Below the pieces are notes generated by a model. It had not been told where the DNA came from, did no database searches, and saw only the letters and a program-made list of their open reading frames with translations. From the IMG/VR virus record IMGVR_UViG_3300035130_000107, positions 1 to 38,587 of that record: a stretch of 38,587 nt of DNA. The stretch is one strand, 5' to 3'. Made by a program: the position numbers and the translations under genes. Of the stretch, positions 17,549 to 33,218 are shown piece by piece. The DNA comes from a virus. Each line of letters begins with the position of its first letter. The first letter of the stretch is position 1.

Positions 17549-17961
17549 CAAAGTTTAATTTTTTAGGGAAGAAAGTCAGGAGCCGCAGATTTTGGGATAA
17601 GGGGAAAACCTTGCAAGCGAAAAAATGGCGTTGGAAATTGGCTGCAAATGAGAGGGCTGATATGAAATATTTCTTTACGGAAAAAAGATTAAATGGTTCT
17701 ATACCTCTCACTCCTTTGATAATTACGATTATTCGGGTGTATCCGACAAATCCAGGTAGACATTCAATGTTTAAACGCCAACAAATTTATGATGATGATA
17801 ATATGAGTGGTGGATGTAAACACCTAAGAGATGGTATCGCGGATGGGTTGGGATATAAGAGCGATAGTCATCCAGATTTAAAATGGGAATACAAACAAGT
17901 TAAAACTAAGAATAAGCAAAACATGATTGTAACGATTAAAACACGGGAGGAAAATGAGTAA
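17545..17961 (+). CDS. RusA-like Holliday junction resolvase, apparent ATA start
   Basis: 138 residues if started at ATA 17545. AAAGGAGG lies seven bases upstream and the ATA overlaps the previous stop, exactly where an ATG would be expected. Downstream codons (AKFNFLGKKVRSRRFWDKGK) read as protein. The first conventional start is a TTG at 17611 without a ribosome site. The core shows the RusA pattern: IIRVYPTNPG, DDDNMSGGCKHLRDGIADGLGY and KSD, where conserved Asp residues bind the metal. It would resolve branched phage DNA. An ATA start or a point mutation in the start codon are both possible. Confidence 0.7.
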   Translation: MAKFNFLGKKVRSRRFWDKGKTLQAKKWRWKLAANERADMKYFFTEKRLNGSIPLTPLIITIIRVYPTNPGRHSMFKRQQIYDDDNMSGGCKHLRDGIADGLGYKSDSHPDLKWEYKQVKTKNKQNMIVTIKTREENE

Positions 17962-18607
17962 ATTATCGATAATAATCCCGGTTCATAACGAAGAAAAAAC
18001 GATACAAGAGACATTAAATCAAGTTTCTAAGATTCCCCTGAACAAAGAAATCCTTGTGATAGATGATGGTTCAACCGATAATACTTTAATAAAAATTATA
18101 TCGTTTGCTAAAAATATGGGAAAAGGTGCGGCTGTCAGGGAAGGTATAAATCAGGCTAAGGGAGATTATATTGTTATTCAAGATGGAGATTTAGAATATA
18201 ATCCGGAAGACTTATCCAAGTTACTACAATCTTTATCGGTGGATTCACAGGTTGTTTATGGTTCAAGATTATTGAAAAAGAATCCGAAAAGTAACTGGCT
18301 GTTTCATCTCGGTGGACGTTCTCTTTCCTGGATAACTAATCTTTTATTTGGTACACACCTGACGGATGTCTATACTTGTTATAAATTATTCCCGACGGAA
18401 ATAGCAAAATCCTTTAATTTGACTTCAAACGGATTCGAGATAGAGGCGGAGTTGACTGCTAAAGCACTTAAGAGAAAATTAAGGATTAAAGAAGTCCCTA
18501 TAAGTTATCACCCGAGATTGGTGGGGAAGAAGATTAAATTCATGGATTGGATAAAAGGAGTTTTAACTTTGTTCAGGATAAGGTTTTCATGGAACGAAAA
18601 GTCTTAA
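17954..18607 (+). CDS. Family 2 glycosyltransferase, polyprenyl-phosphate type
   Basis: 217 residues, complete GT-A domain: IIIPVHNEEKTI at 6-17, IDDGSTDNT at about 35-43, NMGKGAAVREG, IQDGDLEYNPED (the DxD-type metal site), VVYGSR, then the HPR..GKKIKFMDW ending typical of dolichyl/undecaprenyl-phosphate sugar transferases. It makes a lipid-linked sugar from a nucleotide sugar on the cytoplasmic face. No C-terminal membrane helices, so DPM1-like rather than GtrB-like. Followed directly by a GT-C protein that could use the lipid-linked sugar. Overlaps the RusA gene by eight bases. Confidence 0.9.
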   Translation: MSKLSIIIPVHNEEKTIQETLNQVSKIPLNKEILVIDDGSTDNTLIKIISFAKNMGKGAAVREGINQAKGDYIVIQDGDLEYNPEDLSKLLQSLSVDSQVVYGSRLLKKNPKSNWLFHLGGRSLSWITNLLFGTHLTDVYTCYKLFPTEIAKSFNLTSNGFEIEAELTAKALKRKLRIKEVPISYHPRLVGKKIKFMDWIKGVLTLFRIRFSWNEKS

Positions 18608-19569
18608 TATTTATTGCGATAATTTTAACGATAGTGGTTTTTACTTTTTTACCTTTTGACGGGGGGGATAATATTAAATATTTTTTATTGAGTCGATCCA
18701 TACAAGAGGGACAATATAGAAGTATCTGGTTACAAGGGCAGCCCCTGCACGTGCATTATCCCCCTGTATTCCCCGGAATCTTAAGCCTGTTTCCAACTTA
18801 TTTGTCTTGTAAAATTGTGGTCTTTTTTATGTTTCTGCTTTTTCTGGTTTATGCTTATTGGTTATTCAAGGAATTGGAATTACCCGATTACACTTTTTTA
18901 CTTTTAATATTTTCTCCCTTACTCTTGACTTATTCACATTGGGTACTATCGGAAATTCCGTATTTACTGTTCAGCACGATTACACTTTTTTGTCTGGCAC
19001 GAAAAGAGTACCCTTTAGCTCTCACATTTGCCCTTATTTCGTATTTAACTCGTTCTGTTGGTATTTCGTTGGTTGTTGTTGTGTCTGTGGTGGTGGTGGC
19101 TTTTTTAGACAAACGTGAATACAGGGCTTTATTTTGCGTTTGGGGTATAATTTTATCCTGGATGGTTTATTGTTTCGTTCATGGCGGAGGGTATATAGGG
19201 CAATATATTTATAAAAATCCGTACAATATACTTTCCGGATATGTAAATTTATCAGATGTATTACAGCGTATTACATTGAATTTAAAGAATTTATTACTGG
19301 TTTCTCTTCCAGAAATATTCGGATGTGTAATTTTTTCTTCTATAATAATCATATTAATAATTTTAGGGGTTATCCATACATGGCGAGATAGGTTTTACCG
19401 AGGACTATTAATTTATATGTGTTTGTTTTTAACGGCAAATTTATTATTACCGAATATATGGTTAGCGGGTCGTTATTATTTACCGTTATTGCCGGTATTT
19501 TGCATATTTGCCGGCAAGGGATTACAATTTTTGGAGGGATATGTATTTAATACAAAGTTTTCTAAGTAA
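18589..19569 (+). CDS. GT-C-fold integral membrane glycosyltransferase
   Basis: 327 residues from ATG 18589, overlapping the upstream gene by 19 bases. About nine or ten membrane helices. The first loop holds FDGGDNIKYFLLSRSIQEG and, later, HYPPVFPG, matching the acidic catalytic loop and P-x-YPP region of GT39/ArnT-like enzymes that transfer sugars from polyprenyl phosphate on the outer face of the membrane. With the GT2 gene it would add a sugar to a host cell-surface glycan or protein. The acceptor is unknown. Confidence 0.75.
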   Translation: MERKVLIFIAIILTIVVFTFLPFDGGDNIKYFLLSRSIQEGQYRSIWLQGQPLHVHYPPVFPGILSLFPTYLSCKIVVFFMFLLFLVYAYWLFKELELPDYTFLLLIFSPLLLTYSHWVLSEIPYLLFSTITLFCLARKEYPLALTFALISYLTRSVGISLVVVVSVVVVAFLDKREYRALFCVWGIILSWMVYCFVHGGGYIGQYIYKNPYNILSGYVNLSDVLQRITLNLKNLLLVSLPEIFGCVIFSSIIIILIILGVIHTWRDRFYRGLLIYMCLFLTANLLLPNIWLAGRYYLPLLPVFCIFAGKGLQFLEGYVFNTKFSK

Positions 19570-20332
19570 ATTATTTATAACGTGCAAGGTGTTATATAAA
19601 TCTTTAATGGATTGGGGTTTTAAATTTTGGATTATTTTTTGGTTTACTGATAAGAAACAAGAAGTTAGGATTTGGGGGTTATGGTATTTTGTCCGGGTTT
19701 GTAATTGGCGTTATAAATTGACGGATGTCGCTTCGATTTACGGTATTGAGGATTATTTTATTTGTCCGGTAAACAAGGGGGATATAGTTGTGGATATAGG
19801 GGCTTATATCGGTGGTTATGCGAAGTGGGTTGAGAATAAAGGTGCTAATGTAGTCGCTATCGAACCACATCCTTCTTCTTATCACTATTTGAAGATGAAT
19901 ACAAGTTTTAAGAAAGGTACATATTTAATAAAAAAAGTTGTATCCAGTAAAGGTGATGTGCGGTTTCTTAACAATATTTCTACTTTATATTTAAACGAAA
20001 GGAATCCCTCTGAACACTCGATAGTCAAAATATCGGATTGGTATATACCACGTGAAACTATACATTTAAGGAATATTATTGAAGAAATATATGGAAACGG
20101 GAATACTATTTTAAAAATGGATTGTGAAGGATCAGAATACGATATTTTATTTAATTCGCAGGATATTTTAGACAAAATAGATAGAATTATCATGGAGTAT
20201 CATGTACCGAAGTATTGGGGTGTTACCGGTTATACTGTTCAGGATTTAGTTAATCTATTGCGGAATCATGGATTTACTGTTAATATAAAACAACAAAAAT
20301 GTTACCAGGGGATTTTATATGCGTACAAGTAA
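19541..20332 (+). CDS. FkbM-family methyltransferase
   Basis: 263 residues from ATG 19541 after GGAGGG with short spacing. SAM-binding motif VVDIGAYIGGYAKW, then EPHPSSYHYLKMN, and the FkbM hallmark KMDCEGSEYDIL, with a final EYHVPK. FkbM enzymes methylate sugar hydroxyls in antibiotics and surface polysaccharides. The first 40 residues are hydrophobic and may touch the membrane. Together with the two glycosyltransferases it suggests a methylated sugar decoration. Overlaps the upstream gene by 29 bases. Confidence 0.88.
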   Translation: MYLIQSFLSKLFITCKVLYKSLMDWGFKFWIIFWFTDKKQEVRIWGLWYFVRVCNWRYKLTDVASIYGIEDYFICPVNKGDIVVDIGAYIGGYAKWVENKGANVVAIEPHPSSYHYLKMNTSFKKGTYLIKKVVSSKGDVRFLNNISTLYLNERNPSEHSIVKISDWYIPRETIHLRNIIEEIYGNGNTILKMDCEGSEYDILFNSQDILDKIDRIIMEYHVPKYWGVTGYTVQDLVNLLRNHGFTVNIKQQKCYQGILYAYK

Positions 20333-21821: not shown

Positions 21822-22182
21822 AAAAGAATTATTCAAATTATTGAAAAATATACCAGATCATATTGAAATAGCTTTTGATATTCCAGGAATGGGAGATCAT
21901 GGAAATTTAGGTCGTGATTGGGAATATATAGAAGAAGAACGAATAAAATTTATAGATCCAGAGACCGAATGTGAATTTGACAATAATACAAATAAGAATA
22001 TAGTAAAAATAATTCAAGGCAAAACTGAAATAGAAATTGAATACTATTCGTTAGAATATTCTTTACCATCAAAAGAACGTATGGAGCTTAATCCCCGTTG
22101 GCGAATCCCAAATGAAAGCTTTTCTTTAAATGGAATAATAAAAAGTATATCTTATAAAGAAATAGATGAAAAAGATAACTAA
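21814..22182 (+). CDS. Hypothetical protein, 122 residues
   Basis: Begins with a short helix (KKELFKLLKNIPDHIEIAFD) followed by acidic strands; no family recognised. ATG 21814 overlaps the upstream gene and follows AAGGGGAAAG. Ends 17 bases inside the following gene. Confidence 0.55.
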   Translation: MNKKELFKLLKNIPDHIEIAFDIPGMGDHGNLGRDWEYIEEERIKFIDPETECEFDNNTNKNIVKIIQGKTEIEIEYYSLEYSLPSKERMELNPRWRIPNESFSLNGIIKSISYKEIDEKDN

Positions 22183-22519
22183 AAATAGAGTAAAATTAAT
22201 CAAAAATGGAACCGAAATAAATAATTTTTCTATTATAGGACAATTTGACAGGAAATTACATAAGGATTTTGACGAAGAATATTCCATGGAATCAAACAAT
22301 ATAAAAATCAGATTGAGTTATTTTTTAATAGGTTTTTTATTAATTATATGTTGTATATTTTGGAAATGGGATTTTATTAAAAACCTCAATCTGTTTAAGA
22401 GCATCTGGAAAAATACTGCGACAAAAACGATCTACGACGAAAATTACAATGATTCAATTGGAGATAACCGAATTAAAGTATATTATAATGGCGAACAATA
22501 TTATATACCATTATATTAA
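22166..22519 (+). CDS. Membrane protein ending in an NGxQYYIPLY motif
   Basis: 117 residues with one membrane helix at about 51-67 (SYFLIGFLLIICCIFWKW). The last 16 residues, RIKVYYNGEQYYIPLY, are nearly identical to the end of the virion-region protein at 31851-33218, and 41 of 48 bases match at DNA level. The motif is similar to a C-terminal strand seen in phage fibre proteins. No ribosome site upstream; translation probably depends on the overlapping gene. Function unknown. Confidence 0.6.
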   Translation: MKKITKNRVKLIKNGTEINNFSIIGQFDRKLHKDFDEEYSMESNNIKIRLSYFLIGFLLIICCIFWKWDFIKNLNLFKSIWKNTATKTIYDENYNDSIGDNRIKVYYNGEQYYIPLY

Positions 22520-22822: not shown

Positions 22823-23359
22823 ATGGGGCAATCTCGATATTATAAAAAACGGAATAAGAAGATCATACAAGATTATAGGGAATTACACAAGAATAAATCT
22901 CGCAATCAAGAAACGATAGACATTGAATTTGCCCTCGCAAAGAAATATGGTGTCAGCACCAATAGAATACATGAAATTTTAAAACGTGAAAGAAATCCTG
23001 GGATATATAAAGAGCTAAAAGAGAACAAAGAAAGAAATTCCGATGAAATACCCTTAAAACTGGAATTATGGCAAATATTAGGTACGCGCCATACGATGCA
23101 CATCCCTATGGATGCTGGCATCTATTTTCTTATAAGTCAAGGTGAGATAGTTTATATTGGCGAAAGTGCTAACATATTTAGACGGATAGCTACACACAGT
23201 GATGATAAAATATTTGATAGTGTTACTTGGCAACCACTCCCCAATTTAAAGAAATCCCTTCGCCGGAAATTAGAAAGAGAATATATTAAACAATATAAAC
23301 CTAAATATAATATGCTTAGCAAAGAAAGGATAATATATGGATTTAACCGAAAGAAATAA
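22823..23359 (+). CDS. GIY-YIG endonuclease with N-terminal DNA-binding part
   Basis: 178 residues. The nuclease domain at about 98-170 has AGIYFLISQGEIVYIGESAN, the GIY and YIG strands, an Arg in FRRIATH and the catalytic Glu in LEREYIKQYKPKYN. The N-terminal 75 residues contain a helix-turn-helix-like segment (FALAKKYGVSTNRIHEIL) for target binding. Typical of phage homing or freestanding endonucleases. Start ATG 22823 directly follows the upstream stop. Confidence 0.85.
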   Translation: MGQSRYYKKRNKKIIQDYRELHKNKSRNQETIDIEFALAKKYGVSTNRIHEILKRERNPGIYKELKENKERNSDEIPLKLELWQILGTRHTMHIPMDAGIYFLISQGEIVYIGESANIFRRIATHSDDKIFDSVTWQPLPNLKKSLRRKLEREYIKQYKPKYNMLSKERIIYGFNRKK

Positions 23360-24157: not shown

Positions 24158-24368
24158 ACTTAAACCTGAACCAATAGTACAAGAAATATTTACTGATATT
24201 TCCACACAGTACTTAATACAACAAGAACTACAAGATATTTATAATTCTTTAGAAATAATAAACCAAGAACCAATAATAATATATATGTCTGAAGAAGAAT
24301 TAGAAGCTTTAGAAGAACCTAAACAAGATAATAAATTTCAAGAGGAACCTGTTTATGAAGATTTATAA
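24147..24368 (+). CDS. Acidic hypothetical protein, 73 residues
   Basis: Very acidic C-terminal half (YMSEEELEALEEPKQDNKFQ) and no recognised domain. ATG 24147 overlaps the terminase small subunit end by 11 bases; no clear ribosome site. Translational coupling to terS is likely. Confidence 0.5.
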   Translation: MKTKLKPEPIVQEIFTDISTQYLIQQELQDIYNSLEIINQEPIIIYMSEEELEALEEPKQDNKFQEEPVYEDL

Positions 24369-25011
24369 TAATATTAATTTAATTGTTAAATATATTAAAA
24401 GAACTTTTAAATACAAAGTGCTTTATATATTATTATGTCTTAAGCATATTATTTTTGTTTATAATATTATGCTTTGTAAAATAAAGGACTTTATTTATAA
24501 TGTATTACTTTTTAAAGAATTGTTATTGTTGTATAGATACCATTCCTCAATCTTATTATTAATTAAAAAGAGCTTAATTCGGTGGGGAACTGTCCCTATT
24601 TTTTTTAATTATGCAACGTCTGATAATATACATTATGTAAACTTAATGCCTAATCAGCATAGTTTTCACTCGAAAGTGGTGTGTTATCCCTATTTTGAAC
24701 AATTCTTCCGAAAAATTATCACGGGTGGGGGTACATTCGAGGGGGCAATAACCATATCATTAAAAATTTTAAAAAGCCTTTCATTACAACCATTTTGGAA
24801 GAAAAAAATAAAAAAGGGTTTAAGTTTATTTAGCTTATCTGCCATGTGTAGAAAAAGTAACGGTGTCGTTCTATTGGGCGACACTTGCCAAATTGTCTGC
24901 AAGGCTTGTAGTGGAGCGGGTAGTTTTGGCGTGTCGGCTATCGTGGTTCCGAGAGGTCATGACTCTCAAAAGAATAGGCACGCCAGAAATAACATTCAGG
25001 AGGTTTAAGGT
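24369..25011 (+). other. 640-base largely non-coding stretch between terS and terL
   Basis: The only long ORF here (24355-25008) is AT-biased, has no ribosome site and no protein-like pattern, and its last 50 codons run through GC-rich hairpins, so it is judged spurious. The first 230 bases are very AT-rich with an AAGCATA/TATGCTT inverted repeat at about 24440-24477. From about 24860 the sequence turns GC-rich and folds (see the ncRNA entry). The region could hold packaging signals or a regulatory RNA. Confidence 0.5.
24863..24984 (+). ncRNA. Structured RNA upstream of the 25012 gene
   Basis: Stem GTGTCG (24863-24868)/CGACAC (24879-24884). Stem GCCAAA (24887-24892)/TTTGGC (24925-24930) encloses hairpin CTGCAA/TTGTAG (24897-24911). 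Stem GGCGTG (24928-24933)/CACGCC (24979-24984) encloses hairpin GAGAG/CTCTC (24951-24967). The second and third outer stems share three bases (24928-24930), so they may be alternatives, as in a switch. The last stem ends about 14 bases before the CAGGAGG site of the next gene. No known family recognised. Confidence 0.5.
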
Positions 25012-25221
25012 ATGGCTAAATTCCCCAATGGATATTGTGGTTTTACATTAAAATCAATGAAAATAGAAAATAATGAATTTGTGTTATATTTCGAACTTAA
25101 TAAGAAAAGTTGGCAATATGAAAAAATGAAATTGCGCCTTGGATTTATTTTATTTTTGAAGTTTATTTTTAAAACAATTACACAAATATCTTTTCTTGCT
25201 TACAGGAGTATTTATGCCTAA
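25012..25221 (+). CDS. Hypothetical protein, 69 residues
   Basis: Begins MAKFPNGYCGFTLKSMKIEN and ends in a hydrophobic helix (LGFILFLKFIFKTITQISFL). A strong AGGAGG site nine bases upstream supports the start. The end overlaps the terminase large subunit by eight bases. Function unknown. Confidence 0.6.
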   Translation: MAKFPNGYCGFTLKSMKIENNEFVLYFELNKKSWQYEKMKLRLGFILFLKFIFKTITQISFLAYRSIYA

Positions 25222-26590
25222 AATATCTTCAGCAGTAACAACAAGTCGAGGCAGGGTAAAGGTATACCCAGCCAACAAGAAAATAAAAATGCATTATTGG
25301 CAATCTCTTGCCATGATAGCAAAAGAGAAGTTTGTTGCATTAATTGCCGGTACAGGTGGAGGAAAGACATTTACTGGTCCTCCCTGGCTTACACAAGAGA
25401 TTAGAAAAGATGACCAATCGACATATATGGTTGTATCCCCAACATATAAAATGTTGACTGGTGCTTGCATGGAAACGCTTTTCGAATATTTAGATATTAC
25501 AGATACATCTTTTGAATATCGAGATAATGCAAAGGAGATTTTATTCCCTACAGGTGGAAAGATATTATTGCGAAGTGCAGATGCTCCGGATAGTCTTGAG
25601 GGTAATCATTGTAAGGCGATATGGTTGGATGAAGCCGGGCAGATGGCTTGGAAGGTTTGGAGAAATATTCAGGCAAGAGTTGGTACTTTAAATGGTAGAG
25701 TTTTAATTACAACAACACCTTATGCACAGAATTGGTTGTATCGTGATTTTTATAGACATTGGAAAAATGGGCTTAAAGATTATTTGGTTATACAATTCCC
25801 CACATGGGCAAACAAAAAATATCCACGAGAAGAAATAGAAAGGGCTAAGGCTACTCTCGACCCTGATACTTTTGATATGCGTTATCGTGGGTTATTTAAA
25901 AAGCGAGAAGGTATTATTTATAAAGATTTTATCGAGGAAAGAGATTGTGTGAAACCCTTTACGGTTCCTTCCGATTGGTTAAGATTGGGTGGTATTGATT
26001 GGGGGTATAATGACCCGTTTGTATTTTTAGATATTGCGGTAGATACCCGGAACGAGGAGATTTACATTGTCAATGAGTATTATAAGCGTGGACAGACAAA
26101 TGAAATTCATGCTTATAATGTTTCTCAAATGATTGATCCTGATGTTAATTATACCGCTTATTATGATCCTTCTGGCGCACAAACTGTTGAGGATTTTAGA
26201 CGGGAGTTGTTCAGGGCTGGTGTTAAAAATATATTTTTAAATCCAGGAGATAATATTTTGATGTCACGGAATACCCACGAAACAGTTGGAGTTGATTATT
26301 TGATGACTTTATTCCGTAAACAAAAAATAAAAGTGGTTGCTGAGAATTGCCCAAATTTTATGGATGAAATAAGTATGTATTCTTGGGAAGGGGGTAAGGA
26401 TGGGGGGAACTATAAAGATAAACCGAGAGATGAAGATAATCATACAATGGATGCAATGAGATATCCTATATTTACACATTTGTATACATGGTTTGGACAA
26501 CCTAAAATTGCAGACCCAATAAGTACATTCGGGAATGTAGAATTTGAAAATGATTTAGAGGGGGCATTCGATGCTGAATGGGCTTTTTAA
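25214..26590 (+). CDS. terL: Terminase large subunit
   Basis: 458 residues from ATG 25214, eight bases after AGGAG; an in-frame ATG at 25196 is inside the upstream gene. ATPase: Walker A GTGGGKT at 46-52, Walker B KAIWLDEAG with the catalytic Glu about 140, coupling motif ITTTPY about 165-170. RNase H-like nuclease: D262 in GGIDWGYNDP, D318 in YYDPSG and D413 in NHTMDAMRY. It pumps DNA into the prohead and cuts it. Complete and normal in length. Confidence 0.96.
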   Translation: MPKISSAVTTSRGRVKVYPANKKIKMHYWQSLAMIAKEKFVALIAGTGGGKTFTGPPWLTQEIRKDDQSTYMVVSPTYKMLTGACMETLFEYLDITDTSFEYRDNAKEILFPTGGKILLRSADAPDSLEGNHCKAIWLDEAGQMAWKVWRNIQARVGTLNGRVLITTTPYAQNWLYRDFYRHWKNGLKDYLVIQFPTWANKKYPREEIERAKATLDPDTFDMRYRGLFKKREGIIYKDFIEERDCVKPFTVPSDWLRLGGIDWGYNDPFVFLDIAVDTRNEEIYIVNEYYKRGQTNEIHAYNVSQMIDPDVNYTAYYDPSGAQTVEDFRRELFRAGVKNIFLNPGDNILMSRNTHETVGVDYLMTLFRKQKIKVVAENCPNFMDEISMYSWEGGKDGGNYKDKPRDEDNHTMDAMRYPIFTHLYTWFGQPKIADPISTFGNVEFENDLEGAFDAEWAF

Positions 26591-29168
26591 TAGGTTTAAG
26601 AGGACGAATAATCAAGTAATTGATTTTCAAGAATCAAAACCTGAAGTTAATTTACGGGAATTAACATATTCTGGTGTATTAGATGAATATATGCAGTACA
26701 TGGATGACTATAGTTTGAATCCGGATGATTTGATTGCGGAGAAGGGATGGGATTATGTTAAGGCAATGGCAGATGACGACACTATTCATTCTTGTCTTGA
26801 AATTAAGAAAACTGGAAGATTGTCAACAGAGTGGGATATAAAAGAAGCCTCAGAAAGTCAAGAAGATAAGAAAGTTGCTGCTTATGTACGATATTGTTTT
26901 AAAAGAATGGATGGTAATTTCAACGATAATTTAAAAGATATTCTTTCCGGTCTGGAATTTGGTCATTCTTGTAGTGAGATGAATTATTTGCGTTATCCTG
27001 ATGGGGAATGGAAAAATTATATTGGTTTAAAATCGATTAAAACTCGCGATCCGAAACATATACGTTATAAATTTGATAAACATGGTAATATTATAGATGT
27101 TATACAGAAAGCGGATTATATCATGGGACTTAAAGAAGATATACATATCCCACGAGATAAATGTATTATTTATACACCTAATAAGTTATTTTCTAATCCT
27201 TACGGAGAACCTGAACTTAAATATGTGTTTAAACCATATTTAGCCAAAAAGTGGGTTGTACGTTTTTGGAATATTGCTCTTGAACGGTATGGTGCCGGTT
27301 TAGTAATCGGGACTTATAATATTGGGCGAGAAGGACAGAAAGAATATTTGGAAAAAGTACTTAAAAATTTGCAAGCTAAGACTGAGATTGTAAAACCCGC
27401 CGGGATAGAAATTGATGTTCAAAATCCTATGGTTGGTGGTAAAATGGCTTATGAATTTGCCCTTGAAAAACATGAAACTGCAATAGCCCGTGCTTTATTG
27501 ATTCCGGATTTAATAGGATTTAGTAAATTTACTAAGGGTTCATTCGCTTTAGGCCAAAAGCATTTTGACGTTTTCTTATGGGTGCTTAAAAAACTCGGTC
27601 GTGATATAGAAGAAACAATTGTAGATGAACAGATTATACGACATTTAGTTAAAATTAATTTTGGTGATAATGTACCAATTCCGCACTTTAAATTTGTACC
27701 ACTTACAGAAGAAGACAAGACTGAATACTTACAGAGAATTGAAGGAATGGCTAAGACAGGTATTGTTAATATGACTCCCGAAGATGAAGTTTATTTACGT
27801 AATTATATGGGTATGCCCAAAAGGGAACTTGAAGATATTGTTGCGGATAAGGAAGAAAAAGAGAAAAAGGCGGAAGAAATTAGACAACAAATGCAAAAAA
27901 ACGCAGAAGAAAATGAAGTTGAAGACGAGGATGAAGAACAACGGGATGGAGAAAATTATACTGAACATAGAATAACCGTTGAAAATAAATTGAATCGTGA
28001 TATTGCCAACGGGAAACTTAAGCGTCCCGAAAAATGTCAAATTTGTGGTAAGACTAATGGCAAAATATATGCACATCATCCTAATTATAATAAATCTAAA
28101 AAAGTAATATGGGTATGCCCTTCTTGCCACAATTTAATTCATGCTAACAATTTACGTAATGAGACCAGTGTAAAAGTTATAAAAAATGTATTAAAAAAGA
28201 AAAATAAATTTGCGGAAAGTAAAGCAAAATCTTATTTAGCATATAAGACTTTTAAATTCAAAGAACTTGGCGATTTTTGGGATAATATCGAAGATAATGC
28301 TATTGCAGAATTACGGAATATATTTAGAAAAACTAAAAATTCCTTTATGGATCGACTTGAACGAAAAGGATATTTGAATGTTGATAATCCTGTAAATTCT
28401 GCGGAAGTTAAAAAATTAAAATTGAACTATACGGGAGAAATTAAAAAAACCCTTACCAATGTTATGACGTTGGGATATTTGCATTCTAAGGCAGTTACGA
28501 TTAACGAAATGCGAGCTGTTAATGATGTTGTAAAAAATATATTCAAAAAAGATATATCCTTGCCGGAATATAATTTGAGTAAGGTTAATTTTCAGGAAGA
28601 ACTTGACCCACAATTTAATTTGAAGGCAGAAAAAGCAATTGAACATTTGGAAAAGAAGATACCAGTTAAAAAATCTGAGTTGTTGTTCTATCAGAGAAAG
28701 GCATATACAATTACTGGGGTGGAAAGTGAAGAAATACTTGGTAGTGCTAAAAATATAATTTATAAACACTTACAAACCGGAGACAAGAAACGAACAAAGA
28801 AAGCGTTTGAGAAGTTATGGGATAAGTATGAACAAACGGGAAAAATAACCGATAAGGGTAAGTTAAGCACCGCATATAGACTTGAAACAATTGTCCGTAC
28901 AAATGTTGGTGAGGCAATGAGCGAGGGACGGCGTGCAATGTATGAAGACCCACAGATAGCCGATGAGATTGTTGCTTATACTGTATCTGCAATACTTGAT
29001 TCGAGTACAACAGAGTATTGTGCAGGTATAGATGGATTAACCTTTTCAAAAGAGGAGTTTAATTTCCCACCTTATCACTTTAATTGCCGGACAGTCGCAT
29101 TACCCGTTTACCGTGGGGAAGAACACACTTTAAAAAGCTGGAAGGAGTCGCCTTATGAATTTTATTGA
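26571..29168 (+). CDS. Portal-HNH-MuF fusion protein
   Basis: 865 residues in one frame. Residues about 20-440 are a DUF935/Mu gp29-type portal (DDTIHSCLEIKKTGRLSTEW, KGSFALGQKHFDVFLW). Residues about 463-525 are a compact HNH domain: RPEKCQICG, AHHPNYNKSKKVIWVCPSC and HNLIH. Residues about 700-855 are a MuF/SPP1 gp7-like minor head domain (LETIVRTNVGEAMSEGRRAM, C-terminal PPYHFNCRTVALPVY). Portal and MuF are normally separate or simply fused; an HNH domain between them is unusual. Start ATG 26571 follows AGAGGGGG and overlaps terL by 20 bases. Confidence 0.88.
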   Translation: MLNGLFNRFKRTNNQVIDFQESKPEVNLRELTYSGVLDEYMQYMDDYSLNPDDLIAEKGWDYVKAMADDDTIHSCLEIKKTGRLSTEWDIKEASESQEDKKVAAYVRYCFKRMDGNFNDNLKDILSGLEFGHSCSEMNYLRYPDGEWKNYIGLKSIKTRDPKHIRYKFDKHGNIIDVIQKADYIMGLKEDIHIPRDKCIIYTPNKLFSNPYGEPELKYVFKPYLAKKWVVRFWNIALERYGAGLVIGTYNIGREGQKEYLEKVLKNLQAKTEIVKPAGIEIDVQNPMVGGKMAYEFALEKHETAIARALLIPDLIGFSKFTKGSFALGQKHFDVFLWVLKKLGRDIEETIVDEQIIRHLVKINFGDNVPIPHFKFVPLTEEDKTEYLQRIEGMAKTGIVNMTPEDEVYLRNYMGMPKRELEDIVADKEEKEKKAEEIRQQMQKNAEENEVEDEDEEQRDGENYTEHRITVENKLNRDIANGKLKRPEKCQICGKTNGKIYAHHPNYNKSKKVIWVCPSCHNLIHANNLRNETSVKVIKNVLKKKNKFAESKAKSYLAYKTFKFKELGDFWDNIEDNAIAELRNIFRKTKNSFMDRLERKGYLNVDNPVNSAEVKKLKLNYTGEIKKTLTNVMTLGYLHSKAVTINEMRAVNDVVKNIFKKDISLPEYNLSKVNFQEELDPQFNLKAEKAIEHLEKKIPVKKSELLFYQRKAYTITGVESEEILGSAKNIIYKHLQTGDKKRTKKAFEKLWDKYEQTGKITDKGKLSTAYRLETIVRTNVGEAMSEGRRAMYEDPQIADEIVAYTVSAILDSSTTEYCAGIDGLTFSKEEFNFPPYHFNCRTVALPVYRGEEHTLKSWKESPYEFY

Positions 29169-29265
29169 ATTTGAATGTCCAGAAAATTATATTTTTGATT
29201 ATCCTGAAGATTGGATTTATGGAGGATGGATTATTGATTTAACAATGGAGGGAGATGATGCCTAA
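29155..29265 (+). CDS. 36-residue acidic mini-protein
   Basis: MNFIEFECPENYIFDYPEDW, Trp/Asp-rich. ATG 29155 is eight bases after AAGGAG, overlaps the portal fusion end and itself overlaps the next gene. Probably translated; no function visible. Confidence 0.45.
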   Translation: MNFIEFECPENYIFDYPEDWIYGGWIIDLTMEGDDA

Positions 29266-30496
29266 ACATAAAAAGGGAGAATCACGAGATGATTGGATGG
29301 CAAGATGTATTCCTTATGTTATCGAAAAAGAAGGATTGGAGCAGAAAGAGGCTGCTGGTAAATGTGGCGGTATGTATGATTCGTGGAAGAAGGCAAATAT
29401 GTCTGAACCGGAAACTTACGATTTATCGGATGTGGAGATATTTGCTGCTGGTAAATGGCGTTCTGCAAATGGTACAATACATGAGTTTTCTATTGATGAT
29501 TTACATGATATTGTAAATAATTTTAATGAATTAAAGGGCCAGGCAGACCCAGCTATTAAAATAGGGCATGATGATAAGCAGGAAATAGCTAAAAATTTAG
29601 GTTTATTCTCTTTAGGGTGGCCAGATAATTTAAGGGTTATTAAAGATAAAATAATTGGGGATTTGAAGAAAATTCCAAGTAAATTATATAAGATTGTTAA
29701 AAATGGTGGGTTAAAGCGTGTTTCTCCTGAAATAGCTTATAATTACCAAGCTCAACCGGGAGGGAAAGTTTATAAGAAATTTTTGCAAGCTGTAGCCCTA
29801 CTTGGAACAGAACAAAAAGCAATGAAATCGCTTAAAGATATTGTCAACGTATATTCGGAGGGAAATGTTAATGACATTTCTTTAGAATTAGATTTTGAAA
29901 CAGCGGTTTTTACAGAAGGAGTTATCGATGAAGATAATAACAAAAACCATATACAGGAGGTAACGGATATGGAACTAAAAGACTTGTTAGATGAAAAGAA
30001 AGCCGAATTGAAAGAAATGAAAGGCAAATTTTCTGAATCTGAATCTAAAGTTAAAAATCTTACCGATGATCTTGGTAAGTCTAATAGTAAAATAGAAACT
30101 TTAGAAGCAGAAAATAAAGAACTTAAGGAGAAAGTTGCCAATTTTACTGAGGAAGCTAAGAAGAAAGAAATTTCTGATTATGTGGACGAAAAAGTAAAAG
30201 AAGGCAAAATACCCGCCGCATTAGCAGATGATTATGTGGTAGAATTTTCGGATTTTTCCGATGAAAAACTTGAGAGTATGAAAAAGCTACTTGATAAGAC
30301 ACCGAGTGTTGATTTTGGCGAACATTCAATTGACACCAGTGAAAAAGATGAACCAGACGAAGCGAAGATAGATAAAGAAACAGGTGACGAAATTGAGAAT
30401 GAAGATAAGGACAAAAAAGTAAAAGCCTATATGAAAGAACATGATGTTGATTACATAACAGCAGATGAAAGGCTAAGAGAACAGGAGGAAATATAA
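29258..30496 (+). CDS. Mu gpI-like capsid protease/scaffold
   Basis: 412 residues from ATG 29258 after GGAGGGAG. Residues 1-45 (KGESRDDWMARCIPYVIEKE..KCGGMYDSW) are a small module often attached to phage head proteins. Residues 55-190 match the Mu I protease (VEIFAAGKWRSANGTIHEFS, PAIKIGHDDK, LKRVSPEIAYNY). Residues 225-300 are a coiled coil (KAELKEMKGKFSESESKVKN) typical of an internal scaffold. It would organise and then cleave the prohead. An internal start such as ATG 29970 could give a scaffold-only product. Confidence 0.85.
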   Translation: MPKHKKGESRDDWMARCIPYVIEKEGLEQKEAAGKCGGMYDSWKKANMSEPETYDLSDVEIFAAGKWRSANGTIHEFSIDDLHDIVNNFNELKGQADPAIKIGHDDKQEIAKNLGLFSLGWPDNLRVIKDKIIGDLKKIPSKLYKIVKNGGLKRVSPEIAYNYQAQPGGKVYKKFLQAVALLGTEQKAMKSLKDIVNVYSEGNVNDISLELDFETAVFTEGVIDEDNNKNHIQEVTDMELKDLLDEKKAELKEMKGKFSESESKVKNLTDDLGKSNSKIETLEAENKELKEKVANFTEEAKKKEISDYVDEKVKEGKIPAALADDYVVEFSDFSDEKLESMKKLLDKTPSVDFGEHSIDTSEKDEPDEAKIDKETGDEIENEDKDKKVKAYMKEHDVDYITADERLREQEEI

Positions 30497-31850: not shown

Positions 31851-33218
31851 ATGAGAAAATTTACTAAAATTTTAATCCTTTCTTTAATAGCGTTTTCTTT
31901 ATATGGACAGCGAATACTCTGGAATCCTATCCTGCGGGGTAAGATGGAAGGCTCGAGCACATCATCTATTAAGATAGATTCACTTAATGTTGCGAATATT
32001 GTTGCTACCGAAAAGGTATTGCTCGATATAGTAGCTGGTAAACTTGTATTGCAAGATGGTACGATTCTGTATTTTACAGATGGAACTGAAGCTGATAGTG
32101 CATATATCTCACATGATGGTACGGATTTGGTTCTTACGGGTGATGGCGGTACAACCGCATTGGAATTAGAAGGGCTTAATTTAATATTATCCAATGATGC
32201 CACTATAGATAACGTCAATGATAATGCAATAGAATTCAATGAAAATAGTGACGAACTTATATGGACTTTTGGTAGTAATACTATAACCGCATCAAGTGGT
32301 GATGTAACATTGTTTGATTATGGTACGATTAATCTCGCAACAGATGCTCTTGATTTGTCAGAAGGAAATATTGGCAATGTCGGTGAGGTAGCACTTGATT
32401 TAGTCGATGATGACGATGGAGCTATTGCAATTGGAGATAATGATGAAACCGTTGCTATCAATTCAAGCGATTGGGATATTACTACTGTTGGTAATATGTC
32501 GGGTATTGGTACATTTGGTGCAGATGGTACAGCGACTTGGACAATGACAACTGGTACAGCACTTACTGTGGCCGGTACTCCAACTAAGATTTTAAGTGCG
32601 GGAAGCTATGGCTCCAAATTAGACATTGCTGAAGGTTCAACTGTTGAAATGGTTACTATCGCTGGAGAAACAACCGAAGATGACTTTTTGATTGGCGAAG
32701 GTATTTATTTGAGAACAACGGGAGAAGATGGCAAGGGATTTGGTGCATCATTTTTGGTAGAAGCTACAAATACTACTGGGACTCCAACATTGGAAGGCGC
32801 ACAAATAATGGCGTTTCTTGGTTCTGTTGGGGGAAGTGAAGCCGCTGTACTTAAAACGAGAGATGGTGACGCTACTGCTGGAATGTATGCACTTTGGTTG
32901 AAAACAGGGGCGAATAATAATTGCGTATTTAATAGTGGTTCAAGAACGGCTCCACTATGGGTCGACAATCAATGCGGGGGAACACACAACGGCGAAGAAT
33001 ATGGTATTTTTTCTTCAACAGGTATGAGCCGCCCTGACGCATGGGCAGGATTTGAAACAACTTCAAGCGGTTACGATCAACTCTTTTACTTTGATGAGAC
33101 CTTTAATTCGGGAGCGGGTACTTGTATAACAACTGATGCAGTTCCTGGCGGGAACCAAGATGCGAGAATAAAAGTCTATTATAATGGTACCCAATATTAT
33201 ATACCATTATATAGATAG
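31851..33218 (+). CDS. Secreted beta-repeat protein in the head module
   Basis: 455 residues. The N-terminus MRKFTKILILSLIAFSLYGQ is a cleavable signal peptide, unusual for a virion-region protein. The body is Gly/Asp/Thr-rich beta sequence (ILYFTDGTEADSAYISHDG, ISHDGTDLVLTGDGGTTA), like phage fibre or beta-helix proteins, and the end is RIKVYYNGTQYYIPLY plus Arg, shared with the 22166-22519 protein. It may be exported to the host surface or be a virion appendage with a vestigial signal. Start follows GGGAGGATAATT. Confidence 0.65.
   Translation: MRKFTKILILSLIAFSLYGQRILWNPILRGKMEGSSTSSIKIDSLNVANIVATEKVLLDIVAGKLVLQDGTILYFTDGTEADSAYISHDGTDLVLTGDGGTTALELEGLNLILSNDATIDNVNDNAIEFNENSDELIWTFGSNTITASSGDVTLFDYGTINLATDALDLSEGNIGNVGEVALDLVDDDDGAIAIGDNDETVAINSSDWDITTVGNMSGIGTFGADGTATWTMTTGTALTVAGTPTKILSAGSYGSKLDIAEGSTVEMVTIAGETTEDDFLIGEGIYLRTTGEDGKGFGASFLVEATNTTGTPTLEGAQIMAFLGSVGGSEAAVLKTRDGDATAGMYALWLKTGANNNCVFNSGSRTAPLWVDNQCGGTHNGEEYGIFSSTGMSRPDAWAGFETTSSGYDQLFYFDETFNSGAGTCITTDAVPGGNQDARIKVYYNGTQYYIPLYR

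What the first reader, a model, noticed from the sequence alone, without database searches (positions are those of the whole stretch)
26571..29168. Portal protein carrying an in-frame HNH domain before a MuF domain
A single 865-codon frame joins a DUF935 portal, a 60-residue HNH nuclease fold with intact CxxC, HH and CxxCH motifs, and a MuF-like minor head domain. HNH genes often sit next to packaging genes as free-standing ORFs, and HNH proteins assist terminase in some phages. Here the nuclease would be part of the portal ring, placed at the DNA channel. It may be a captured homing nuclease that stayed in frame, an intein-like or processed product, or a functional packaging nuclease.
Basis: partly seen in the sequence, partly recalled or inferred. 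Interest (0 to 1): 0.7.

Follow-up and report, generated by a model that had tools for sequence, protein, structure and literature searches.

The report
HNH module inside portal-MuF fusion protein
In this uncultivated phage the protein that forms the DNA-entry ring of the head carries, between its portal part and a second head-protein part, a small DNA-cutting-type (HNH) module of the class that usually sits in mobile introns; close relatives have the same two-part protein without the module, so it was inserted, and what it does there is untested.

Summary
ORF 26571-29168 (865 aa) is one open frame: a DUF935/Mu-type portal, an HNH (beta-beta-alpha-metal) module at residues ~464-531, and a MuF domain. 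The portal-MuF fusion itself is ordinary: 19 relatives have it, and it is published for Microbacterium phages. The HNH is not shared. The closest relatives (L007, L008, 46-50% identical; L087, about 40%) have the same fusion with a short linker, so ~120 residues including the HNH were added in frame on the window's branch. The module is the C-terminal half of a phrog_2340-type endonuclease, whose nearest named relatives are ORFs splitting DNA polymerase genes of phages K, Bobb, BSP12 and EFDG1. It keeps every residue invariant in 68 relatives. No intein or intron signature was found. A second, independent case turned up: L140/L181 has a related HNH in frame inside a MuF-type protein, and a 66%-identical relative (L182) lacks exactly that piece. 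Best explanation: a homing-type HNH module captured in a permissive linker of a virion protein, still folded and metal-binding, tethered inside the head near the portal crown. Catalysis, role and cleavage of the polypeptide remain untested. New variant of a known kind.

The parts
26571..29168 (+). 865-codon ORF: portal - HNH - MuF fusion protein
   Evidence: one open frame, ATG start
26667..27911 (+). portal (DUF935 / Mu-type) domain, residues ~33-447
   Evidence: PF06074 at 63-408; phrog_113 portal 3-459; solved portals are the best matches of the model
27912..27959 (+). acidic, low-confidence linker, residues 448-463
   Evidence: pLDDT under 50; absent from L007/L008
27960..28163 (+). HNH (beta-beta-alpha-metal) module, residues ~464-531; C489xxC492, H502H503, C516xxC519-H520xxxH524
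   Evidence: phrog_2340; family HMM E 7.9e-22; model and fold comparison
28164..28256 (+). low-confidence Lys-rich linker, residues ~532-562
   Evidence: pLDDT 41-53 over residues 531-560
28257..29165 (+). MuF (SPP1 gp7-like) domain, residues 563-865
   Evidence: PF04233 758-843, TIGR01641 729-846; aligned end to end with L007/L008 and L087
25196..26590 (+). terminase large subunit; its end overlaps the start of the portal ORF
   Evidence: PF03237 and PF17288, phrog_2
29255..30496 (+). head maturation protease gene directly downstream; a candidate for cleaving the linkers
   Evidence: phrog_976 E 6.6e-35

Best explanation
Shown: the protein is a naturally fused portal-MuF virion protein into whose variable linker a ~65-residue HNH module, with extra linker (~120 residues in all), was added in frame. 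Shown: the module belongs to the phrog_2340 endonuclease family, lacks the N-terminal zinc finger of full-length members, and keeps every invariant metal-binding and HH residue. Inferred: it descends from a mobile homing-type endonuclease that landed in, or recombined into, a spot where an in-frame flexible insert is harmless. Inferred: in the virion each portal subunit displays one folded zinc/HNH module on flexible tethers on the crown side, inside the head, where it can touch packaged DNA. The most likely present role is DNA binding, or sequence-restricted nicking, carried over from its homing past; it need not be required for packaging, since close relatives do without it.
For: Single open frame, portal and MuF above curated cut-offs. 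Nineteen relatives have the portal-MuF fusion and no HNH, so a frameshift artefact would have to recreate an ancestral fusion. The portal tree puts the window with L007/L008/L009 (99/92) and then L087 (100/99), so the HNH is most simply a gain on the window's branch. Nearest named HNH relatives are endonuclease ORFs splitting DNA polymerase genes or sitting next to SSB genes. All invariants kept. Confident HNH-type model with disordered flanks; best VIA-align hits are Gme HNH nicking endonuclease (Z 6.3), phage T5 SciA (5.9) and PacI (4.2). Independent parallel: L140/L181 HNH inside a MuF-type protein, with empty site L182 at ~70% DNA identity on both sides; its HNH is closer to free-standing genes (62-66%) than to the window's copy (41%).
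Against: Only one record carries this exact arrangement, so selection on the insert cannot be measured. Structural Z-scores are modest, as usual for a domain this small. The family's common P and L before the second CxxC are S and K here, so reduced or lost catalysis is possible. A nuclease at about 12 copies inside the head would endanger the packaged genome unless it is specific, nicking or inactive.
Confidence: 0.6

Rival explanations
1. Neutral passenger: the linker tolerates insertions and the HNH is a decaying or merely structural zinc knob with no function of its own.
For: The junction is variable in length in relatives, and other small zinc modules sit there (L016 and L023 zinc ribbons; PcaP2EGY portal C-terminal C2H2-like finger). 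Close relatives lack it. P and L of the family motif are changed.
Against: All eight invariant residues and the near-invariant V and W are intact although portals in this clade have diverged to about 50% identity.
Confidence: 0.22
2. Non-splicing selfish element: the in-frame HNH cuts portal-MuF genes that lack it during mixed infection and is copied in by repair, as homing endonucleases do, but without intron or intein because the linker accepts it.
For: Family origin; filled and empty alleles exist in two unrelated systems (window against L007/L008; L140 against L182); an 11/14 direct repeat borders the L140 insert.
Against: The two insertion sites are not homologous. The border repeat is weak (about 4% by chance) and none borders the window's insert. 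The N-terminal finger is missing. No close filled/empty pair exists for the window.
Confidence: 0.18
3. Packaging or ejection nuclease: the module acts on phage DNA at the portal, or is released by the head protease and injected with the genome.
For: MuF proteins are brought into the head by the portal and some carry cargo toxins (PMC6316719; PMC3482391). A head maturation protease gene follows directly. Linkers either side are low-confidence.
Against: Known packaging HNH proteins are free-standing; close relatives with the same portal-MuF fusion manage without it; no cleavage data.
Confidence: 0.12
4. Group I intron or intein carrying the HNH, spliced out of RNA or protein.
For: Nearest annotated HNH relatives interrupt DNA polymerase genes.
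Against: No Rfam match in the window and none of an intron at E 5 in the region; the insert is fully open and in frame; no HINT domain; the parallel L140 insert is only about 240 nt.
Confidence: 0.03

Closest known systems
Portal-MuF fusion proteins (Microbacterium phage clusters EA3/EA5/EA8/EB, PMC7302621; IMG/VR L007, L008, L010-L013, L018; MAG contig L087)
   Same: One frame joins the portal and the MuF minor head protein.
   Different: No HNH between them in any of the 19 relatives examined here.
phrog_2340 HNH endonucleases: Staphylococcus phage K ORF87, Bacillus phage Bobb gp120, BSP12_135, Enterococcus EFDG1 gp064 (all split DNA polymerase genes); Sf6 gp26 (next to SSB)
   Same: Same C-terminal HNH module, about 37-48% identical in the matched part, same invariant residues.
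   Different: They are own genes of 140-190 aa with an N-terminal Cys4 finger; here only the C-terminal module remains, inside a virion protein.
L140/L181 (IMGVR_UViG_3300005918_001864): HNH inside a MuF-type head protein
   Same: Same HNH family, in frame in a virion protein beside the portal; empty relative L182.
   Different: Portal is a separate gene; insert lies within the MuF-type protein, upstream of its core; independent capture; contig ends before the MuF core.
HNH packaging proteins beside cos terminases (HK97 gp74 type; Kala et al. 2014, as cited in PMC6316719)
   Same: HNH fold, head/packaging region.
   Different: Free-standing proteins acting with terminase; not fused to a portal.
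MuF polymorphic toxins (PMC3482391, PMC6316719)
   Same: MuF protein carrying an enzymatic cargo domain.
   Different: Toxins lie C-terminal to MuF; here the module is N-terminal to MuF and nothing follows MuF.

Membership tests
phrog_2340-type HNH endonuclease | CxxC ... HH ... CxxCHxxxH with the family invariants | tested here: met
   family HMM E 7.9e-22, all invariants present
phrog_2340-type HNH endonuclease | N-terminal Cys4 zinc finger of full-length members | tested here: not met
   absent; the portal tail precedes the module. Short members without it exist (L170, L173, phrog_11793)
phrog_2340-type HNH endonuclease | beta-beta-alpha-metal fold | tested here: met
   predicted, mean pLDDT 86.7; HNH nucleases are the top matches, Z 4.2-6.3, which is modest
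phrog_2340-type HNH endonuclease | endonuclease activity | not testable with these tools
   needs purified protein
Mu/DUF935 portal | PF06074 above gathering score and portal fold | tested here: met
   184 bits against 23.9; portals including JBD30 and Mu among the top folds
MuF minor head protein | PF04233 / TIGR01641 above cut-off | tested here: met
   37.3 against 29.6 and 43.2 against 39.65 bits
Intein | HINT domain and splice junction residues | tested here: not met
   no HINT family in the Pfam scan; no Cys/Ser ... His-Asn-Cys/Ser/Thr junctions at the insert borders
Group I intron-encoded homing endonuclease | intron core around the ORF at this locus | tested here: not met
   no intron hit in Rfam; insert in frame throughout
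Free-standing homing endonuclease | own start codon with ribosome-binding site | tested here: not met
   no plausible internal start with a Shine-Dalgarno sequence before the module
cos-packaging HNH protein | separate HNH gene beside terminase | tested here: not met
   only one HNH of this family in the window, inside the portal ORF
cos-packaging HNH protein | stimulation of terminase cos cleavage | not testable with these tools
   biochemical
MuF polymorphic toxin | toxin domain C-terminal to MuF | tested here: not met
   MuF match ends at residue 846 of 865

The most novel reading that the evidence does not exclude
Portal/MuF virion proteins are recurrent landing sites for in-frame HNH modules that spread by homing without any intron or intein, with the host linker standing in for splicing; or, equally unexcluded, an active HNH nuclease is built into all portal subunits and acts on DNA at the crown or in the infected cell.
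Probability: 0.2. Interest if true: 0.7.

Novelty: new variant of a known kind. Interest (0 to 1): 0.45.

Why it matters
Portal proteins are among the most constrained phage proteins, and no nuclease domain inside one was found in the papers and records searched here. A folded HNH module tolerated in frame at the portal-MuF junction, plus an independent in-frame HNH in another phage's MuF-type protein with a close empty relative, shows how homing-type nucleases can become parts of virion proteins. It gives concrete filled/empty pairs with which to test activity, homing and delivery.

Tried and rejected
Assembly or frameshift artefact: rejected, since relatives are fused in the same way without the HNH. 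Loss of catalysis argued from the missing middle N: rejected as an argument, since the family varies there and eight of 68 relatives also have K. Intein and intron: rejected. Internal start giving a free HNH-MuF product: no ribosome-binding site in front of candidate starts. Direct repeat bordering the window insert: none at 12/14 or better. Border repeat in L140: 11/14, about 4% by chance, kept only as weak evidence. Single-protein scans of IMG/VR with P0001 or its MuF part found no close relatives, so dN/dS was not possible. A search of 147 genomes of the phylum of the WOR-3 MAG gave only portals without HNH. No paper describing an HNH inside a portal was found. Foldseek alone gave no match at E under 0.001 for the small module. 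Other zinc modules in the same linker (L016, L023) and at a portal C-terminus (PcaP2EGY) were looked at as possible functional parallels; nothing shows that they share a role with the HNH.

Full report
OBSERVATION. The window is a 38,587-base IMG/VR virus record. The ORF 26571-29168 is open for 865 codons; its start overlaps the end of the terminase large subunit gene. Pfam places a Mu/DUF935 portal at 63-408 (E 6e-54) and MuF at 758-843 (E 5e-9), both above curated cut-offs; TIGR01641 agrees. Between them PHROGs finds the endonuclease family phrog_2340 (E 1.8e-15; 5.6e-15 for the excised module). An HMM built here from 68 relatives, without the window, detects the ORF at E 7.9e-22 and finds no second such module in the window.

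WHAT THE MODULE IS. The core is C489xxC492, H502H503, Y506, W514, C516xxC519-H520xxxH524. In 68 aligned relatives the two C of the first pair, both H, Y, the first C of the second pair and the last two H never vary, and the window has all of them. The residue in the place of the N of HNH is K511; relatives have D, E, K, N or T there, so this says nothing about activity. The window differs from the family at two otherwise common residues (P to S, L to K). The nearest named relatives are endonuclease ORFs lying between two DNA polymerase pieces in phages Bobb, BSP12 and EFDG1, phage K ORF87 inside a three-piece polymerase gene, and Sf6 gp26 and similar genes beside SSB. These have 140-190 residues with an N-terminal Cys4 finger that the window copy lacks. 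In the IMG/VR scan most relatives are free-standing ORFs; a few are fused to other proteins (L116 to a DNA methyltransferase, L119 to phrog_11527). AlphaFold models the module with mean pLDDT 86.7, as helix, beta hairpin, helix. VIA-align's best matches are HNH nucleases: Gme HNH nicking endonuclease Z 6.3 (79 residues, 3.2 A), T5 SciA 5.9 and PacI 4.2. The Z-scores are modest, but HNH nucleases stand at the top.

THE FUSION AND THE EMPTY SITE. Portal and MuF are separate genes in Bacillus phages such as Blastoid, but fused in 19 relatives, 17 viral contigs and two MAG contigs, and such fusions are published for Microbacterium phages (PMC7302621). None of these 19 has an HNH, and the family HMM finds none beside any of the other portal loci searched with it. 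L007 and L008 (50% and 49% identical over the portal) run 'GIPIEEKTEKSFSFAAKKPKVKTKAHSIVNFAEIKK' where the window has about 120 more residues. L087, a contig of a WOR-3 MAG, is likewise without it. The portal tree groups the window with L007/L008/L009 (99/92) and then L087 (100/99), so the insert is most simply a gain on the window's branch. In the full-length model (mean pLDDT 79.5) the portal ends in a helix at 420-447, residues 448-463 and about 527-551 are low-confidence, and the MuF part starts at about 563: the module looks like a bead on flexible tethers. The portal part matches solved portals including JBD30 and Mu.

A SECOND CASE. In L140/L181 (a 4.2-kb IMG/VR contig) a separate phrog_113 portal is followed by a head-morphogenesis ORF with the same HNH family in frame. 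L182, about 70% identical in DNA on both sides, has the same protein with the HNH missing: '...VTIIQKARADVSVGVNPYS...' against '...VEIIQKT[HNH]QIIQKAKYGTAGMGVGINPYS...'. The 14-base borders match at 11 positions, which chance gives in about 4% of trials. The L140 HNH is 62-66% identical to its nearest free-standing genes and 41% to the window copy, so these are independent captures. Their insertion points differ (portal-MuF junction against inside the MuF-type protein).

OTHER MODULES AT THE JUNCTION. L016 and L023 carry CxxC...CxxC zinc ribbons in the same linker, and the Pectobacterium phage PcaP2EGY portal ends in a C2H2-like finger. The place thus accepts small zinc modules of more than one kind.

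MECHANISM. Shown: architecture, family, conservation, empty relatives. From the literature: in SPP1 the portal carries gp7 (MuF) into the procapsid, gp7 is dispensable for assembly but supports infection, and gp7-like proteins can carry toxins (PMC6316719). Inferred: each portal subunit displays the HNH inside the head near the crown. The likeliest reading is a captured homing-type module still able to bind (perhaps nick) DNA, in a place where it does little harm. A pure passenger, a non-splicing homing element, or a packaging/ejection nuclease remain open, in that order. Intein and intron are unlikely.

NOVELTY. Portal-MuF fusions and in-gene homing nucleases are both known. Their combination, an HNH inside a portal polypeptide, was not found in 50,697 phage records (the best places cover the portal/MuF parts or the HNH, not both) nor in the papers searched. 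New variant of a known kind; interest is moderate because a single record carries it and activity is unknown.

Noticed in passing
22470-22516 and 33166-33212: A 47-nt direct repeat (87%) encodes nearly the same C-terminal peptide RIKVYYNG[T/E]QYYIPLY at the ends of two otherwise different ORFs (22166-22519 and 31851-33218).
   Followed up: partly
22823-23359 (+): ORF with a weak GIY-YIG nuclease match (E 4e-4, below cut-off) just upstream of the terminase small subunit: a possible second mobile nuclease.
   Followed up: no
24368-25196: About 800 bases between the terminase subunits without a convincing gene; the 217-aa ORF there looks non-coding. No tRNA or Rfam match.
   Followed up: no
17954-18607 and 19508-20332 (+): GtrB-like glycosyltransferase and a methyltransferase close together upstream of the packaging genes.
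   Followed up: no
L069:4326-7208: A DUF935 portal with an apparent intein-like insertion (RAAYR / C...N / SYWAKD), at a different site from the window's insert.
   Followed up: no
L016, L023, L005:2866-4248: Zinc ribbons in the portal-MuF linker (L016, L023) and a C2H2-like finger at a portal C-terminus (PcaP2EGY): small zinc modules recur at this place.
   Followed up: partly
L140:2497-3453, L182:4995-6011: Filled and empty versions of a MuF-type protein differing by an in-frame HNH of about 80 codons.
   Followed up: yes
L116:2650-4011: The same HNH family fused to a DNA methyltransferase in one ORF.
   Followed up: no
L002:4680-5312: Rossellomorea phage phiT1 gp60, annotated 'portal protein', is a MuF-type protein whose homology to the window starts about 180 bases upstream of the annotated start.
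   Followed up: no
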